Part shown: one piece after another, positions 18,140 through 25,300 of the stretch
Layout of the letters: every line of letters starts with the position of its first letter
How positions within the stretch are numbered: the stretch's first letter is position 1
From: Lachnospiraceae bacterium
Lineage (GTDB): Bacteria > Bacillota > Clostridia > Lachnospirales > Lachnospiraceae
DNA length: 64,000 nucleotides
Reading direction: 5' to 3'
Assembly (NCBI GenBank): GCA_015057435.1
Contig: SVEJ01000012.1
Span: forward strand, 1 to 64,000
Program-made: the position numbers and the translations under genes
Notes under the pieces: model-generated
The model's input: only the letters and a program-made list of their open reading frames with translations
The model's database searches: none
What the model was told of the DNA's origin: nothing

Positions 18140-18223
18140 GAGCATTGCATCATAAAGGCTGTAATTTGAATTATTACGATTCAATGACATTCTCGAGTTA
18201 TAATTCTTCAGGCAAGCACCCTA

Positions 18224-19027
18224 TCACTGACAAAACTCCATAATTCTATCCAAGAAATCCTTCGCTTCCTCATTGGCGGCATGGCCAAACTCTTCATACA
18301 TATGTATTTCGCTTCCGGAAATTTGGGTTGATATTTCTATTGACGCCTCTCCTGTGACAATCTGATCCTTCTTTCCTCCTATAACAAGAGTCGGGCAAGT
18401 GATTTGTACTAATTCATCAAATGCATCATGTTCAATACAAGCTTGTGCCATAATTAGAAAACGTTTAAAGCTTTTGGGTTTACCCACGTTTCCCATCAAA
18501 GAAAACATCCACCTGCTTTTTTTCAAATAATGCTCTGAATAGTATTTCTCAGCTGTATCTATCATAAGAGATTTATAATCACCACATTTAGCCATATCCA
18601 TCCAAGTAGAAATCACCTTTTGTACAGTATCATTTTGTCTTGCCAGAGTAACTGTTAAGATTAATTTCTCTATCAAATCAGGGAAATCAATCGCTAAATA
18701 TTGTGCTATCATTCCACCTTGAGAAACCCCAATAACCGAAGTGCGTTCCACCCCTAATTTTTGTAATGCAACTGCCACATCCTTTGCCATATCGCTTGTT
18801 GTGAAACCTTGTGGCATTACATTTCTTCGACTCATTACATACACCCTGTAATCCTTAGCAAGCTTTTTGTACATCAATGCGAAAGGAACTGCCATTCCCT
18901 TGGCAGTTTTTAATCCATCACTTAAACCCGGAATCATCAAGAGATTCTTTTTTCCGTTACCAAAAACAATATAATCTATATCCGTATTGTCAATTGCTAT
19001 CGTTCCATTTTTTGCACTATAAAACAT
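18224..19027 (-). CDS. alpha/beta hydrolase
   Basis: A 267-residue alpha/beta-hydrolase fold enzyme: oxyanion region LLMIPGLSDG, nucleophile elbow GVSQGGMIAQ (Ser), acid in GGKKDQIV and the catalytic His in EFGHAANE. No signal peptide, so cytoplasmic. Its first codons overlap the end of the DUF3021 gene by 11 bases and it ends the LytTR operon, so it is probably the effector gene or quorum-type product modifier of that unit; substrate unknown. Confidence 0.82.
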   Translation of the reverse strand: MFYSAKNGTIAIDNTDIDYIVFGNGKKNLLMIPGLSDGLKTAKGMAVPFALMYKKLAKDYRVYVMSRRNVMPQGFTTSDMAKDVAVALQKLGVERTSVIGVSQGGMIAQYLAIDFPDLIEKLILTVTLARQNDTVQKVISTWMDMAKCGDYKSLMIDTAEKYYSEHYLKKSRWMFSLMGNVGKPKSFKRFLIMAQACIEHDAFDELVQITCPTLVIGGKKDQIVTGEASIEISTQISGSEIHMYEEFGHAANEEAKDFLDRIMEFCQ

Positions 19028-19478
19028 CTACTTCCTCCTTTATCTTTTGCTGTTTAAATGCATTTAATTCCTCATTCATTTCCCTTGTACTAACCACACG
19101 TTTCACACTATAAGCCCAATAAGCACAAACATAACAAAAAAGCATAAACGCAAAATAGACTCCTGTTATAACTAAATTGCGGTCAAACCATTTCCCCCAA
19201 AAACTTACACCGGTATAGATAAGTGCACCACAAATCATTTTAATTACAACAGCTAAATCAACTTGTTCTGCCTCATCAAAATTCCCCAATAAAAACACCT
19301 GTATATATCCCATAATATAGGTTGTCGCCATCATTTCAATTAAAACCACAATATCCACTTGGCTACTTCCTTGCAGCAACTGATAAACAAAGTAGAAAAA
19401 AATGATTGTATAAAAATATATTGCCGCCTTGAATTCTATTCCCAATTCTTTTGCCAAAATTTTTTCAAACTTTCTCAT
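19017..19478 (-). CDS. DUF3021 membrane protein
   Basis: The 153-residue protein has four membrane segments in the DUF3021 pattern (AAIYFYTIIFFYFVYQLL, a second at 45-65, then two after residue 80) and ends in a charged coiled tail. DUF3021 proteins are the inhibitory membrane partners of stand-alone LytTR regulators. Its start overlaps the regulator stop by one base, and it overlaps the hydrolase gene downstream, so all three are translationally coupled. Confidence 0.85.
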   Translation of the reverse strand: MRKFEKILAKELGIEFKAAIYFYTIIFFYFVYQLLQGSSQVDIVVLIEMMATTYIMGYIQVFLLGNFDEAEQVDLAVVIKMICGALIYTGVSFWGKWFDRNLVITGVYFAFMLFCYVCAYWAYSVKRVVSTREMNEELNAFKQQKIKEEVDVL

Positions 19479-19918
19479 TACTGTTCTCCTTTCAAAATAC
19501 TTCTAAGTGTCTTCACATATCGCCTCGATATAATCACGTGTTCACCATTATCCATCGTGACATCCACCCGATTTCCGGAGATACTTTTCAAGTAGGATAT
19601 ATGATAAATGTTAATCACCATGGATTTACTACATCGAAAGAATCCTTCTTCAGCATACATATTCTCCGCCGTAGCAAGAGTTAAGCTAGTCTTTCCAATT
19701 TCACCTTTTGTGTACACATACACTGCATTATCCACACTCTCCAAATACAGCACATCACTTGGTGTAATCAATATTTTCTTTTCTTCATTCACCGCAAGAA
19801 TTTTGCCATTCTTCTGCTCTATTCTTCTTATCAAGCTATCTATTTCTTCGTTTCTTTCAATGTAACGAACAATGACTTCCTCTTGCCCCTCGCTTATCTG
19901 TTGTAATGTAAGTTTCAT
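19478..19918 (-). CDS. LytTR-family DNA-binding regulator
   Basis: The 146-residue protein lacks a receiver domain and consists of an N-terminal ~45 residues and a C-terminal LytTR domain (about 45-146) with DVLYLESVDNAVYVYT, FFRCSKSMVINIYHI and VIISRRYVKTLRSIL. Such proteins paired with DUF3021 (as LytTR regulatory systems) usually activate their own operon and are restrained by the membrane partner. A CAACT-N4-AGTTG palindrome lies just upstream of a promoter (20023-20050), consistent with autoactivation. Confidence 0.9.
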   Translation of the reverse strand: MKLTLQQISEGQEEVIVRYIERNEEIDSLIRRIEQKNGKILAVNEEKKILITPSDVLYLESVDNAVYVYTKGEIGKTSLTLATAENMYAEEGFFRCSKSMVINIYHISYLKSISGNRVDVTMDNGEHVIISRRYVKTLRSILKGEQ

Positions 19919-20022
19919 ATATTTTTTATCCTTCTTTCATTGTACTATGTATCGATGATTACCGTATCTTTGTTGTACCTCTTATTTCAAAATACGCTTG
20001 CTTTTATATTCCCTATATGCCT

Positions 20023-20069
20023 ATCTTATCGAAATCTCCAAAAAATGCAATGGTTCAACTCGTAAGTTG
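20023..20069 (-). promoter_or_regulatory. LytTR operon promoter with upstream palindrome
   Basis: Minus strand: TTGCAT (20050-20045), 16-nt spacer, TAAGAT (20028-20023). Six bases upstream of the -35 is CAACT-CGTA-AGTTG (20056-20069), placed where a LytTR activator would bind. Confidence 0.55.
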
Positions 20070-20130
20070 CACTTTTAAAAAGGTAAGCGGTAGAACATAA
20101 AATATCATTAACTTAATATATTAAATTAAA

Positions 20131-20156
20131 AAGACTTTAGATTGCTCTAAAGTCTT
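20131..20156 (-). terminator. terminator of the toxin-antitoxin/ABC-2 remnant unit
   Basis: AAGACTTTAG pairs with CTAAAGTCTT over 10 bp with a 6-nt loop, followed on the minus strand by five T residues. The remnant ORF's stop codon lies in the stem. Confidence 0.8.
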
Positions 20157-20293
20157 CTCATCCACAGCAACTGCAACACACATCTGCATGCAATTTCATC
20201 ATAAGACAATTGTCCCAGATATATCTGAACTGGCGCGAAATAAATACTAGCAAATGGTGTGAAATTTATAATAGTTTTCATCCAATCAGGCAT
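20147..20293 (-). pseudogene. C-terminal remnant of an ABC-2-type permease
   Basis: The 48-codon reading frame, absent from the track, gives PDWMKTIINFTPFASIYFAP and then VQIYLGQLSYDEI, a pattern I recognise from the C-terminal part of ABC-2 family permeases (COG3694/COG4587 type), which are about 260 residues long. About 200 N-terminal residues and the last helix are missing; the frame runs into the terminator hairpin. AAGGAG sits only three bases before the ATG, so it might still be translated. It lies 27 bases after the antitoxin gene. Probably a deletion scar. Confidence 0.55.
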
Positions 20294-20320
20294 ATGCTCC
20301 TTCTACCAATAAATCCTTTT

Positions 20321-20653
20321 TCATCTTTCTGACGGTTCCATCTTTACGAAAGGAAAATTCACCATAAGATTCGCATCCATTTCCATCATATTTAAGATAC
20401 GACTAGCTGCCCCTGATGGGTGATTCAATCCTGCTTCCCATGCTTCTACAGTCTTAACCGAAATCCCCATATAACCTGCGAAAAGTCTTTGAGATAGACC
20501 CATTTTATTACGAATTGCTTTAATTTCTCCCGCACTATAGCTCTTAACCGGAACAACCTCGACCACATGTCTTTTTAACTTTTTGTCTTTGCTTTGTGCA
20601 TCTTCAATAGCTTCACTGAGACCCCTCATAATACTTTCATATACTTTACTCAT
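20321..20653 (-). CDS. HigA-like antitoxin / HTH regulator
   Basis: The 110-residue protein has an N-terminal helical segment (MRGLSEAIEDAQSKDKK) and a C-terminal HTH domain (about 40-95: IKAIRNKMGLSQRLFAGYMG, then SVKTVEAWEAGLNHPSGAA), typical of antitoxins of HigBA/RelE-type modules where the toxin gene is upstream. It should bind the palindrome inside the operon promoter. The cognate toxin carries an internal deletion. It begins 14 bases after the toxin stop with AGGAGG before the ATG. Confidence 0.82.
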   Translation of the reverse strand: MSKVYESIMRGLSEAIEDAQSKDKKLKRHVVEVVPVKSYSAGEIKAIRNKMGLSQRLFAGYMGISVKTVEAWEAGLNHPSGAASRILNMMEMDANLMVNFPFVKMEPSER

Positions 20654-20667
20654 ATTAAAACCTCCTA

Positions 20668-20868
20668 TTACAAGTTTTTTTCCAAGAATTCAATCGCTTT
20701 TTTGATATCTTTACACTCTCGCCTTGTCAAATTTGTCTTTTCACTTTTAGAGTAAGCTGTAATTAAGTATATGGTTTCATACACAACAAAATCAACATAA
20801 CAAACTCTTATACCACTTCTTTTCCATGCATCTTCAAATTCAGAGGTTTGAATAAACGTTCTCTCCAT
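20668..20868 (-). pseudogene. RelE/HigB-type toxin with internal in-frame deletion
   Basis: The 66-residue ORF starts MERTFIQTSEFEDAW, like the N-terminus of ~110-residue RelE/ParE-family HigB toxins, and then jumps directly to SGIRVCYVDFVVYETIYLIT and a normal C-terminus ending KKAIEFLEKNL. About 45 residues that normally lie between (including the GTGGLRK and GRGKSGG segments) are absent. The frame, start and GAGGTGG ribosome binding site are intact, so a short protein may be made, but the toxin is probably inactive. It might still bind the antitoxin. Confidence 0.7.
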
Positions 20869-20890
20869 TCAACCACCTCTATCTAATCAA

Positions 20891-20920
20891 ATTTTACCCT
20901 ATCAAATAGGGTATTGTCAA
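20891..20920 (-). promoter_or_regulatory. toxin-antitoxin promoter with embedded operator
   Basis: Minus strand TTGACA (20920-20915), 18-nt spacer, TAAAAT (20896-20891). The spacer contains the perfect palindrome TACCCTAT-TTG-ATAGGGTA (20913-20895), the expected site for antitoxin autorepression. Confidence 0.75.
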
Positions 20921-21102
20921 CTAAAAGTATCACACAAAAACAATTTTTCTCCATATACTTCCTCCTTGGTATAAAATAGAAAATAATAAAATAATGGGAA
21001 TTCGTATACGATAGTATACTTACAGAAAGATAAGTAAATATTACCCTTTGATGTGGCACTTATTATATGCTAGTCTGTCGTAAAAATCAATTACTTTTGG
21101 AG

Positions 21103-21140
21103 TAACAAAAAAAGGATTCTGCAATTCACAGAATCCTTTT
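21103..21140 (-). terminator. terminator of the HTH-TPR regulator gene
   Basis: Stem AAAAGGATTCTG / CAGAATCCTTTT (12 bp) with 7-nt loop and a seven-base T run on the minus strand. The 190 bases from 20921 to here hold nothing else that I can see. Confidence 0.85.
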
Positions 21141-21154
21141 AAACTATAGTTAAA

Positions 21155-22192
21155 CTAGTTTATATGCATCATTTTTTTCCAACGTTCATCCTCTTTCAGA
21201 AAACCAAATGTTTCTTCATCATGAAATGTACGAAGCAAATCTTTTTGCATTTCCTTTACAACCTCCCGTTCCATCTTCTTAAATGTCATATGTTCATAAA
21301 GTTCTGATTCACTAAAATCACCAATCTGTTCCACACTATCAAGCATGGTTTTCACAACTTCAATCACTTTATCTGCATCCTGTTCTAATACTGCAAGTTC
21401 TAATTGGCAAGAAACCTCATAGTAATTACCCATTTCAAAAAGCTTTGCCAGCTCTTGCTGCTTTGTAACATACTTGTGCGCTTTGGCTAAATTATTACTT
21501 TCCATTGCCAAAGCACATAGACTATTAAAAACCATACTAATCATCTGATAGCCAGAAAACAACAATTCTTCGTAGGCTTTATATGCTTCATCCAATCGAC
21601 CTGTTTTGCTATAGATAAACGCTTGTTTTCTCTTACGCTCCGGATTTTGTTCTGACAAGTACGTCAAATATTGCCCAGCTATTTCATACTCTTCTTTTCG
21701 CACATAGTAACCGTACAATGAATCCGCTGCACAATTTCGAAGCGTTTCCTCTTCGCTCTCTAGGACTTGTTCGTAACAACGAAGTATATACATATCATAC
21801 TTAGCAACATCCACTACATCCTTAAATAATCTTTGTGCATCAAGAATAACCGCCATCTGCCAAATTAAAGCTTTACAATTCGGATATTGTTCCATGATAT
21901 GCTTTGCCCATTGAAACACTTCCTCGTAAGTTTCGCTTTTCATACGTATATCTAATTCTTGTACATAATTCTTTATCTTCTCCTCGGAAAGATGTTCTTG
22001 AAAGGACAGCAACTCCTCCAGTGTGATATTCAGCAATCTCGCTATTGGTGCTAGCATTGTAATATCAGGATATGCATTCCCTTTTTCCCATTTATTCACT
22101 GCAGGAGCTGTAACTCCTAATCGATTGGCCATTTCTTCTTGTGTCATATTCTGCTCTTTTCTGTACTTTCTTATCACATCTCCAATTTGCAT
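21155..22192 (-). CDS. XRE-family regulator with TPR C-terminal domain
   Basis: The 345-residue protein has an N-terminal HTH_3 domain (residues 3-60: VIRKYRKEQNMTQEEMANRL, APAVNKWEKGNAYPDI) and a long helical TPR-like domain (about 80-320). This layout resembles Rgg/PlcR-like or other peptide-sensing regulators, but in Lachnospiraceae such proteins are numerous and mostly uncharacterised. The start at 22192 follows AGGAGG. It has its own terminator and lies alone between the toxin-antitoxin patch and addA. No target can be assigned. Confidence 0.82.
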   Translation of the reverse strand: MQIGDVIRKYRKEQNMTQEEMANRLGVTAPAVNKWEKGNAYPDITMLAPIARLLNITLEELLSFQEHLSEEKIKNYVQELDIRMKSETYEEVFQWAKHIMEQYPNCKALIWQMAVILDAQRLFKDVVDVAKYDMYILRCYEQVLESEEETLRNCAADSLYGYYVRKEEYEIAGQYLTYLSEQNPERKRKQAFIYSKTGRLDEAYKAYEELLFSGYQMISMVFNSLCALAMESNNLAKAHKYVTKQQELAKLFEMGNYYEVSCQLELAVLEQDADKVIEVVKTMLDSVEQIGDFSESELYEHMTFKKMEREVVKEMQKDLLRTFHDEETFGFLKEDERWKKMMHIN

Positions 22193-22326
22193 ATACGAGC
22201 CTCCTAATATGATTACATTCACTGACGAATGCTGTTTTTTGTATCATAACAAACACAGCTTTCCTACACAATTGAATTCACGTTAATAATATTGCAATAA
22301 ATTTAACTGTCATTCAATTTTTAAGC

Positions 22327-22358
22327 AAAAGAAACCAGATTCATCTAAATCCGGTTTC
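22327..22358 (-). terminator. terminator of the addBA operon
   Basis: GAAACCGGATTTAGATGAATCTGGTTTC folds into a 6+ bp hairpin extended by GATT/AATC pairing, followed by TTTTGCTT on the minus strand. Confidence 0.65.
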
Positions 22359-22367
22359 TCCATACGC

Positions 22368-25300
22368 TTAATCTTGTAACACCAATATTTCCTTTCCTAG
22401 CGCAAAGGAATAGATATAACTTTCCGCAACCAAAGTTCCGGTCAAACGTTCTAACGTCTCCTTGTAATATCGCATCTGTGTTTCGTATCGGTTCACAAGA
22501 ACATCTTCTTGACCTTCCTTAATCCGGTCTGTCTTATAATCCACCAAGATCAGTTTCTCGCCTTCTTTAAAATACGCATCAATAATACCTTGCACAACAA
22601 TCGGTGTATGATTATCAGATCCTTGTTGATGCTGCTCACTTGCCAAATCCTTTTGTATTAATTCCCGAGCCGCAACACCCACAACAAACTGTTTCTCTTT
22701 CAATAGATTGCCCTTCTTTGCAGCATCATGCATTCTCTTTCCGAGATTCGATGTAACAAACGTATATATTGCATCTACAGTAATAAACTGTTTTGTCTCT
22801 TCCGGAAGACGCCCACAACTCCACATATCAGATAATGCATGTTTCACTTGCTCTTTTGTCATCACTTCCGCATTCGGAAGCAATTCCATTACTTTGTGCA
22901 TCCACGTACCCTTTTGTGCTGCATCCATCATTTTTTCTCCCTCAACAAAACGAGGAAGCGGTGCCACATAATCTTCTTTCACCGATAACTCTACCAATTC
23001 ATCTGCACTTTCTGTCTCGATTTCATACATACGTTTGATTTCCGTAACAGAAAGTTTTGATTTTTGCAATGTATACGGCATATTTTTATACTGCCACAAC
23101 AAACGCTGTTTGATTATTGACTTCCGGTCAGTCGGTGCATGAGAAAATGCCAACAACTGTTGTTCACGGTCCATCTGTTTTTCTAATCCGGACTGAATAT
23201 GTTGTACTACCACATCAAAATAATTATACACTCCGACATGCAATCGAATATCCGGTTCCTTTATCGGAATATCTAATTCATATTCTCCTGACAAGATATG
23301 CTCACCTTTTTTATCAAATCTCTTTTCCACTAACTGCATAGCATCATGAAATGTCGCATTTCTAATAAGAGCCATCACTACCAAATCCAGATAATTCTTA
23401 GCTGTATGCACAACAGCATACCTTAATTGTTTCTCTTTCATCTTCGCGATATTCTCATACTTCTTAACCAACACGGTTATATCCGGAACAACCCCTGTCA
23501 TAATTAATTTTTCTTTCGCTCTGGTAAGGGCAACATACAAAATGCGAAGTTCTTCCGCAATGCTTTCCGTTACCATAAGTGATGCAAAGGCTTTTCTTGC
23601 AAACGTATCATTTCCACATCGTCTATCCGTATCCACATACTTGGCTCCAACATAATAATCCGAATGAATAATAATCGGAGACTTCGTATCCATCAGGTTA
23701 AAGTTCTTAGCCATTCCCGATACAAATACAACAGGAAATTCTAATCCCTTGCTTTTGTGTATACTCATAATGCGGACAACATTTTCATCACTCTCAGGTG
23801 CAGGATCACCTCCAAGTGCAATTGATTTTTTCTGCAACTTCTCAATAAAATGCAAAAACCGAAACAGATTATGAACGCCATTACTATCAAAGCGTCTGCA
23901 TTCTTCATAGAACAAATCAAGGTTACGAATTCTTTGTTTACCTTCCGGCAACACTTCTACATAATAGTAATAACCTGTATCATAATATATGTTAGAAACA
24001 AGATTACTAACCGTAATATATTGCTTTTGTTCTTGCAGCTTATCGATAAAATGCACAAAAGATATACATTTATCACGAAGTTGTTCATCCTTGTATTCAT
24101 CATGGTCCGAAATCGCTTTTATAACTTCATATACACATAATTGTTGTTCTGATTTCAAAAACTTTCGCTTTTCAATCGCCAGTAACGCAAGCTCTTCGTT
24201 ACTAAATCCTGCAAAATAACTTCGAAGTACCGCTACTACTTCCAGATCATTATGAGGATTGTCTATCACGCGAAGCAGACTCAAGACCAGACTAATTTCG
24301 GTCGTGTCAAAATAGCCATTTTCATTCTGGACTTTCACAGGTATTCCATAGCTCATAAGAACTTCAGAGAAAATGTGCTGATATCCGCTTGGCGCACGGA
24401 ACAAAATTACCATATCACTCAATTGCACATTGCGTAGAATTTCCTCTTCTTCACCTGTTTGCTGATTAATTGTCTTTTCAACTACTTGATATGGAGCACT
24501 TCCATCTTCTCCAAGCATGGATAAGATTTTCTTTGCCACAATTGACGCTTCAAGTTCCTTTTTGCCGATATCTTCAAGCTTCTCATCTAATGTCTCCTCT
24601 TTGACTGCAGTCATCACTTCATCAGATGCTTTCAAAAATTCAAAATCCTTGCTCTCCGCCAGCAAAAGTTCCACACTGTCATCCGGTCCGCATAAAAAAT
24701 CTCTTCCCGGTACCAGCGCCTCATCCTCTGTATATTCAATACCACCCAAATCTTCTCCCATAATCTGATAGAACATATAATTGATGGTTTCTAATACATT
24801 AGAACGGCTACGGAAATTATTCTTAAGCAGAAGCTTACGACAATCTGCTCCTTGCTCAGTACCATAAGTCCGATACTTCTCCATGAACAAATCAGGGCGG
24901 GCCATACGAAAACTATAGATACTTTGCTTGACATCGCCAACCATAAAAATGTTATAAACACCGCAATGCAACTTAGATACACACTTAAGAATCGCTTCCT
25001 GCAAAAAATTACTATCCTGATATTCATCAATTAAAATCTCTGCAAAATCTTCAGACATTTCTTTCCCAATATCACTCGGAATCGGCTCTCCATCTTCCGT
25101 ATATTCCTTACACAAAACCTGTAATGCAAAATGTTCGATATCACTAAATTCCAAAATACCACGTTTTAATTTGGCTTCCAAAAAACGATTACGAAAAGCT
25201 TCAGAAACATCCAACAATGCGCCCAATACGTGTTCTTGTTTTTCAAACTGTGCCAGCACAGAAACAAACGGCAATACAAAAGCCTCTAAAATAGCGCTAA

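What the first reader, a model, noticed from the sequence alone, without database searches (positions are those of the whole stretch)
20668..20920. Toxin-antitoxin module with a neatly excised toxin middle
Seen: a 66-residue ORF joining the family N-terminus (MERTFIQTSEFEDAW) directly to RVCYVDFVVYETIYLIT, an apparent in-frame loss of about 45 codons, while the antitoxin, promoter (TTGACA/TAAAAT) and an internal 19-bp operator palindrome are intact. Inference: selection removed toxicity but kept the autoregulated antitoxin, or the mini-protein works as an anti-toxin decoy.
Basis: partly seen in the sequence, partly recalled or inferred. Interest (0 to 1): 0.5.

Follow-up and report, generated by a model that had tools for sequence, protein, structure and literature searches.

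The report
Antitoxin kept after toxin deletion
A bacterial poison-and-antidote gene pair has lost the core of its poison gene but kept the antidote and its self-regulating switch; related bacteria have repeatedly done the same by separate deletions, probably because the antidote alone protects against invading DNA that carries the poison.

Summary
ORF 20668-20868(-) is a HigB2-type (PF06296) toxin lacking exactly 44 internal codons. The HigA2-like antitoxin, promoter and 19-bp operator are intact, and the genome has no other toxin of this family. It is not a mini-toxin family: a sibling species keeps a 98%-identical antitoxin and the same operator at the orthologous locus, with the whole toxin gone. 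In 397 genomes of the family, 16 of 29 antitoxin loci have a deleted, truncated, frameshifted or missing toxin, with varied breakpoints; 14 of the 16 keep the operator and 15 keep the antitoxin ORF. Near-isogenic modules show full, partly deleted and fully deleted toxins. Two species sharing one deletion show 5 silent and 1 replacement change in the antitoxin, which diverges less than its flanks: constraint after toxin loss. A single toxin loss is ordinary decay; the recurrent retention of operator plus antitoxin is the interesting part. Best guess: a solo antitoxin giving immunity to HigBA2 modules carried by phages or plasmids (intact modules with a matching operator lie among phage capsid, portal and terminase genes). 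Immunity is inferred; no function was tested. New member of a known kind (orphan antitoxins).

The parts
20668..20868 (-). higB2-type toxin remnant, 66 codons: residues 1-15 fused to residues 60-110 (44-codon in-frame deletion)
   Evidence: predicted not to fold
20818..20826 (-). approximate deletion junction (around W15-K-R; the exact base may be blurred by microhomology at GGAAAAGA)
   Evidence: alignment; the microhomology is inferred, since no near-isogenic full-length copy was found
20321..20653 (-). intact higA2-like XRE antitoxin, 110 aa
   Evidence: 98% identical protein in sibling G003
20895..20913 (-). operator palindrome TACCCTAT-TTG-ATAGGGTA
   Evidence: single site in the genome; conserved in paired and solo relatives
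20915..20920 (-). -35 element TTGACA
20891..20896 (-). -10 element TAAAAT
20127..20160 (-). terminator-like hairpin downstream of the antitoxin
   Evidence: consensus match only
18190..22368 (.). variable interval between queF and addA that holds the module; closed up in sibling G016

Best explanation
This is a higBA2-family (PF06296 toxin, XRE antitoxin) toxin-antitoxin operon whose toxin has been inactivated in place by a deletion, leaving a self-repressing solo antitoxin. Shown: toxin core deleted; promoter, operator and antitoxin intact; same end state reached repeatedly by different deletions in relatives; antitoxin constrained after toxin loss in at least one lineage. Inferred: HigA binds the single operator and holds its own expression at a set level. 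Because no other site and no cognate toxin remain in the genome, its selected role is to neutralise HigB2-type toxins, and to repress the operons, of incoming phages or plasmids (anti-addiction or immunity). The 66-residue product is an inert remnant. (Solo-antitoxin end state: about 0.85; immunity role: about 0.5.)
For: Exact 44-codon deletion. Removed residues 16-59 include the predicted second helix and strand 49-54 with four of nine invariant residues, G46 G47 K50 R52. Sibling G003: same operator, toxin wholly gone. Family survey: 16 of 29 antitoxin loci toxin-dead, operator kept in 14, antitoxin ORF in 15, while 13 of 13 intact toxins sit with an intact antitoxin and operator. Order survey adds 11 toxin-dead and 8 intact of 19. 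Near-isogenic modules: G498 full, G647 242-bp deletion, G340 complete deletion; G647's antitoxin block is 96.4% and 96.6% identical to theirs. Shared-deletion pair G255/G478: 5 silent and 1 replacement changes, P=0.002; antitoxin 1.9% divergent against 6.4% in flanking genes, P=0.0006. One operator in the genome. No other toxin in the genome. The putative toxin-binding N-terminus is as conserved in solos as in paired antitoxins. Intact modules with 11-12 of 12 operator-arm matches lie in phage contigs next to portal/terminase (L138) or capsid (L140) genes.
Against: No functional data. Phage-borne antitoxins found are only 40-45% identical to this one, so cross-neutralisation is uncertain. Four antitoxin loci are themselves broken (G338, G723, G624, G611-C13:40417), so some modules do decay further. 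The solo antitoxin also shows low silent divergence (dS 0.08 against about 0.3 in flanks), which recombination could explain. Change counts are small and the binomial test ignores transition bias.
Confidence: 0.6

Rival explanations
1. Plain decay: the toxin was lost because it is costly, and the antitoxin and operator remain only because they are harmless and the loss was recent.
For: Broken antitoxins exist at four loci. G000/G003 and G647/G340 antitoxins are close (dS about 0.1), so the losses are recent.
Against: Antitoxin intact in 15 of 16 toxin-dead loci in the family survey. Constraint in the pair that shares one deletion, so acting after loss. Operator conserved equally in paired and solo loci.
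Confidence: 0.22
2. The solo antitoxin is kept as a transcription regulator of other host genes.
For: HigA-type antitoxins are repressors; M. tuberculosis HigA2 is reported to have multiple targets (PMC11205783, title and abstract start only).
Against: Only one operator-like site in the genome with fewer than 3 mismatches; 3-mismatch hits are about as many as for the reversed-pattern control. The N-terminal segment is conserved as in paired antitoxins, though this segment also aids DNA binding in V. cholerae HigA2 (PMC11006873).
Confidence: 0.1
3. The 66-residue mini-protein is functional, binding antitoxin as a decoy or co-repressor.
For: The ORF is open and its C-terminal part still matches the family consensus.
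Against: No homologue of this form found; fully absent in the sibling; not predicted to fold; remnants elsewhere share no part. In-frame joins are only some of the partial deletions read (G000, G090, G545; not G164, G647).
Confidence: 0.04
4. Assembly artefact in a draft genome.
For: Draft genome (74 contigs); reads unavailable.
Against: No second copy to mis-join. Similar deletions in near-complete low-contig genomes: G227 (2 contigs), G255 (20), G647 (2).
Confidence: 0.03

Closest known systems
V. cholerae HigBA2 (PF06296 toxin HigB-2 / XRE antitoxin HigA-2; PDB 5JA8, 5JA9, 5JAA, 8A0X)
   Same: Toxin-first operon; same toxin family; same antitoxin family; single inverted-repeat operator between -35 and -10 (PMC11006873).
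   Different: Here the toxin core is deleted. Operator sequence differs (ACCCTAnnnnnTAGGGT against TGTACGC(N)5GCGTACA).
Orphan antitoxins, e.g. in the Klebsiella pneumoniae complex (PMC7192599)
   Same: Antitoxin without a functional toxin; anti-addiction proposed there too; many share the genetic context of intact pairs.
   Different: Here the origin is read directly: in-place deletion between one conserved operator and the antitoxin, repeated across genera in one toxin family, with evidence of constraint after loss.
Anti-addiction antitoxins (discussed in PMC2654758, PMC7354431 and others found; not read in full)
   Same: Chromosomal antitoxin proposed to blunt addiction by mobile modules.
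   Different: Neutralisation of an incoming toxin was not tested here; phage modules found are 40-45% identical in antitoxin.

Membership tests
HigBA2 (PF06296) toxin-antitoxin module | Antitoxin of the HigA-2 XRE type downstream of the toxin | tested here: met
HigBA2 (PF06296) toxin-antitoxin module | Full-length PF06296 toxin with its conserved core | tested here: not met
   44 codons missing, including invariant G46 G47 K50 R52; no Pfam hit for the 66-mer
HigBA2 (PF06296) toxin-antitoxin module | Operator palindrome within the promoter | tested here: met
HigBA2 (PF06296) toxin-antitoxin module | Ribosome-dependent mRNA cleavage and its neutralisation | not testable with these tools
   needs expression assays
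Orphan (solo) antitoxin | Intact antitoxin with no functional toxin beside it or elsewhere in the genome | tested here: met
   (assembly 92.8% complete)
Orphan (solo) antitoxin | Antitoxin under purifying selection after toxin loss (not required by the usual definition, but needed for the functional reading) | tested here: inconclusive
   Met for the related pair G255/G478 (small counts); for the window's own pair G000/G003 the constraint may partly predate the loss
Anti-addiction module | Neutralises a toxin carried by a mobile element | not testable with these tools
   Only a matching operator and homologous intact modules in phage contigs were shown
Distinct mini-toxin family | Homologues of the same shortened form | tested here: not met
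   none

The most novel reading that the evidence does not exclude
In this bacterial family the usual fate of higBA2 modules is conversion to an autoregulated solo antitoxin by deletion of the toxin cistron in place, maintained by selection as a small immunity gene against phages and plasmids that carry the same module under a near-identical operator: a domestication route running continuously from addiction module to immunity gene.
Probability: 0.35. Interest if true: 0.68.

Novelty: new member of a known kind. Interest (0 to 1): 0.47.

Why it matters
Orphan antitoxins are known, but whether they are debris or working genes is unsettled. This family gives a natural series (intact, partly deleted, fully deleted, at about 96% identity) with a conserved operator and constraint after toxin loss, so the anti-addiction idea can be tested directly with a handful of plasmids in laboratory strains.

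Tried and rejected
Mini-toxin family: no matching homologues. A second full toxin in the genome that the antitoxin could serve: none. Other regulatory targets: none above control. A fold for the 66-mer: low confidence. The HigB2 structure paper (10.1093/nar/gkx138) is not held, so active-site residues were taken only as family-invariant positions. Defence annotation gave only weak helix-turn-helix matches. No paper on HigB modules in this bacterial group with this pattern was found. G017 was left out because its contig ends beside the antitoxin; G616, G575, G482, G501, G587 and G578 hits were left out as different antitoxin types.

Full report
OBSERVATION. The ORF at 20668-20868(-) encodes MERTFIQTSEFEDAWKRSGIRVCYVDFVVYETIYLITAYSKSEKTNLTRRECKDIKKAIEFLEKNL. 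Aligned to full-length homologues it joins residue 15 to residue 60 of a 110-residue toxin, so exactly 44 codons are missing in frame. The antitoxin (20321-20653) is an intact XRE protein. The promoter and the 19-bp palindrome inside it are as described. The genome holds no second copy of the toxin.

WHAT IT IS. Full-length relatives belong to PF06296 and match V. cholerae HigB-2; the antitoxin matches HigA-2. V. cholerae HigA2 binds one inverted repeat lying between the -35 and -10 elements and neutralises HigB2 through its disordered N-terminus (PMC11006873). The arrangement here is the same. In the predicted full-length fold (pLDDT 88: E4-7 H9-17 H22-38 E49-54 E63-71 E76-84 H93-109) the deletion removes the end of the first helix, the second helix and strand 49-54, with four of the nine residues invariant in 21 homologues. 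The 66-mer itself is predicted without a stable fold (pLDDT 54). Loss of activity is therefore very likely, though inferred.

THE SIBLING. G003, in the same genus, has a 98%-identical antitoxin in the same orientation downstream of the same HTH-TPR gene (with other genes in between), with the same promoter and operator, but the sequence runs from GGTGGTTGA straight into TAGGGGGTTTTAATATG: the toxin ORF is gone. The antitoxin block is 96.8% identical in DNA, the HTH-TPR gene 90%, and the addA-like gene about 69%. The module sits in a variable interval between queF and addA that is closed up in G016 and holds other cargo in G008.

RECURRENCE. In 397 genomes of the family, 29 loci encode this antitoxin type. 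Thirteen have a full-length toxin, all with operator and antitoxin intact. Sixteen do not: toxin truncated (e.g. G097 residues 1-67, G227 1-31, G297 1-51), internally deleted (G000, G090, G164, G101), frameshifted (G075), reduced to a C-terminal scrap (G435, G255, G238), fused in frame to the antitoxin (G186), or absent (G340, G338, G139, G129). The operator is retained in 14 of the 16, and in the solos lies 28-310 bp from the antitoxin start, against 361-406 bp in intact loci. The antitoxin ORF is intact in 15 of 16. An order-level survey adds 19 loci of the same type, 8 intact and 11 toxin-dead, including nonsense codons in G674 and G738. In the window's genus G015 has lost the toxin and G010 has a broken one; related toxins beside a different antitoxin are broken in G003-C147 and G005.

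INDEPENDENCE AND AGE. G498 (full toxin) and G647 (242-bp deletion, toxin start codon lost) match at 96.4% on both sides of the gap; G340, in another genus, has a 96.6%-identical antitoxin block with G647 and no toxin at all. These and the G000/G003 pair show recent losses with different endpoints. G340's junction falls in the two Shine-Dalgarno stretches, which suggests that the GGAGG repeats flanking the toxin can serve as deletion endpoints; this is inference from one clear case.

SELECTION AFTER LOSS. G255 and G478 share one deletion in orthologous surroundings that align over 3.2 kb at 94% with a single gap. Their antitoxins differ by 5 silent and 1 replacement change (P=0.002 under neutrality), and the antitoxin (1.9%) and operator region (1.0%) are less divergent than the flanking genes (6.4%; Fisher P=0.0006 for the antitoxin). 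G000/G003 show 6.5 silent and 3.5 replacement changes (P=0.0065), but there part of the time may precede the loss. Low silent divergence in the antitoxin (dS 0.08 against about 0.3) could also reflect recombination.

HOW IT PROBABLY WORKS. The genome has one operator and no cognate toxin, so the antitoxin can act only on itself or on something arriving. Intact modules whose operator arms match at 11-12 of 12 positions occur in phage contigs: L138 between portal and terminase genes, L140 beside a capsid gene. The same toxin family is common on plasmids, at lower identity. I therefore favour immunity, by neutralising the incoming toxin and repressing its operon. The phage antitoxins are only 40-45% identical to the window's, so cross-reaction must be measured.

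COMPARISON AND NOVELTY. Orphan antitoxins are abundant in Klebsiella and anti-addiction has been proposed for them (PMC7192599). This locus is a new member of that known kind. What I did not find reported is the recurrent in-place excision within one operon family with operator retention and constraint after loss.

LIMITS. Searching with the antitoxin favours loci where it survives, although broken copies were still recovered. Change counts are small. Toxin-dead and intact classes rest on sequence, not on activity.

Noticed in passing
L085:1159-1806 (G129): The HigA2-like antitoxin is fused in frame behind a KilA-N domain (PF04383, E=1.9e-9), with no toxin or operator upstream: an antitoxin recruited into a two-domain protein.
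   Followed up: partly
L094:61-459 (G186): The first 40 residues of the toxin run in frame into the whole antitoxin, a possible toxin-stub/antitoxin fusion.
   Followed up: partly
L138:1526-6314 and L140:1-5492: Intact HigBA2 modules inserted, on the opposite strand, inside phage head and packaging gene clusters.
   Followed up: partly
window 18190-22368: Hot spot between queF and addA: empty in G016, a two-component and ABC transporter set in G008, about 4 kb more on each side of the module in G003.
   Followed up: partly
L103/L235 antitoxin (G255/G478) and window 20292-20668 vs L041: Solo antitoxin blocks are less divergent than their neighbours, in G255/G478 even at silent sites; recombination or unusual constraint, unexplained.
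   Followed up: no
L075 and L076 (G003-C147, G005-C41): A second HigB-like toxin subfamily beside a different XRE antitoxin is also frameshifted or truncated next to an intact antitoxin.
   Followed up: no
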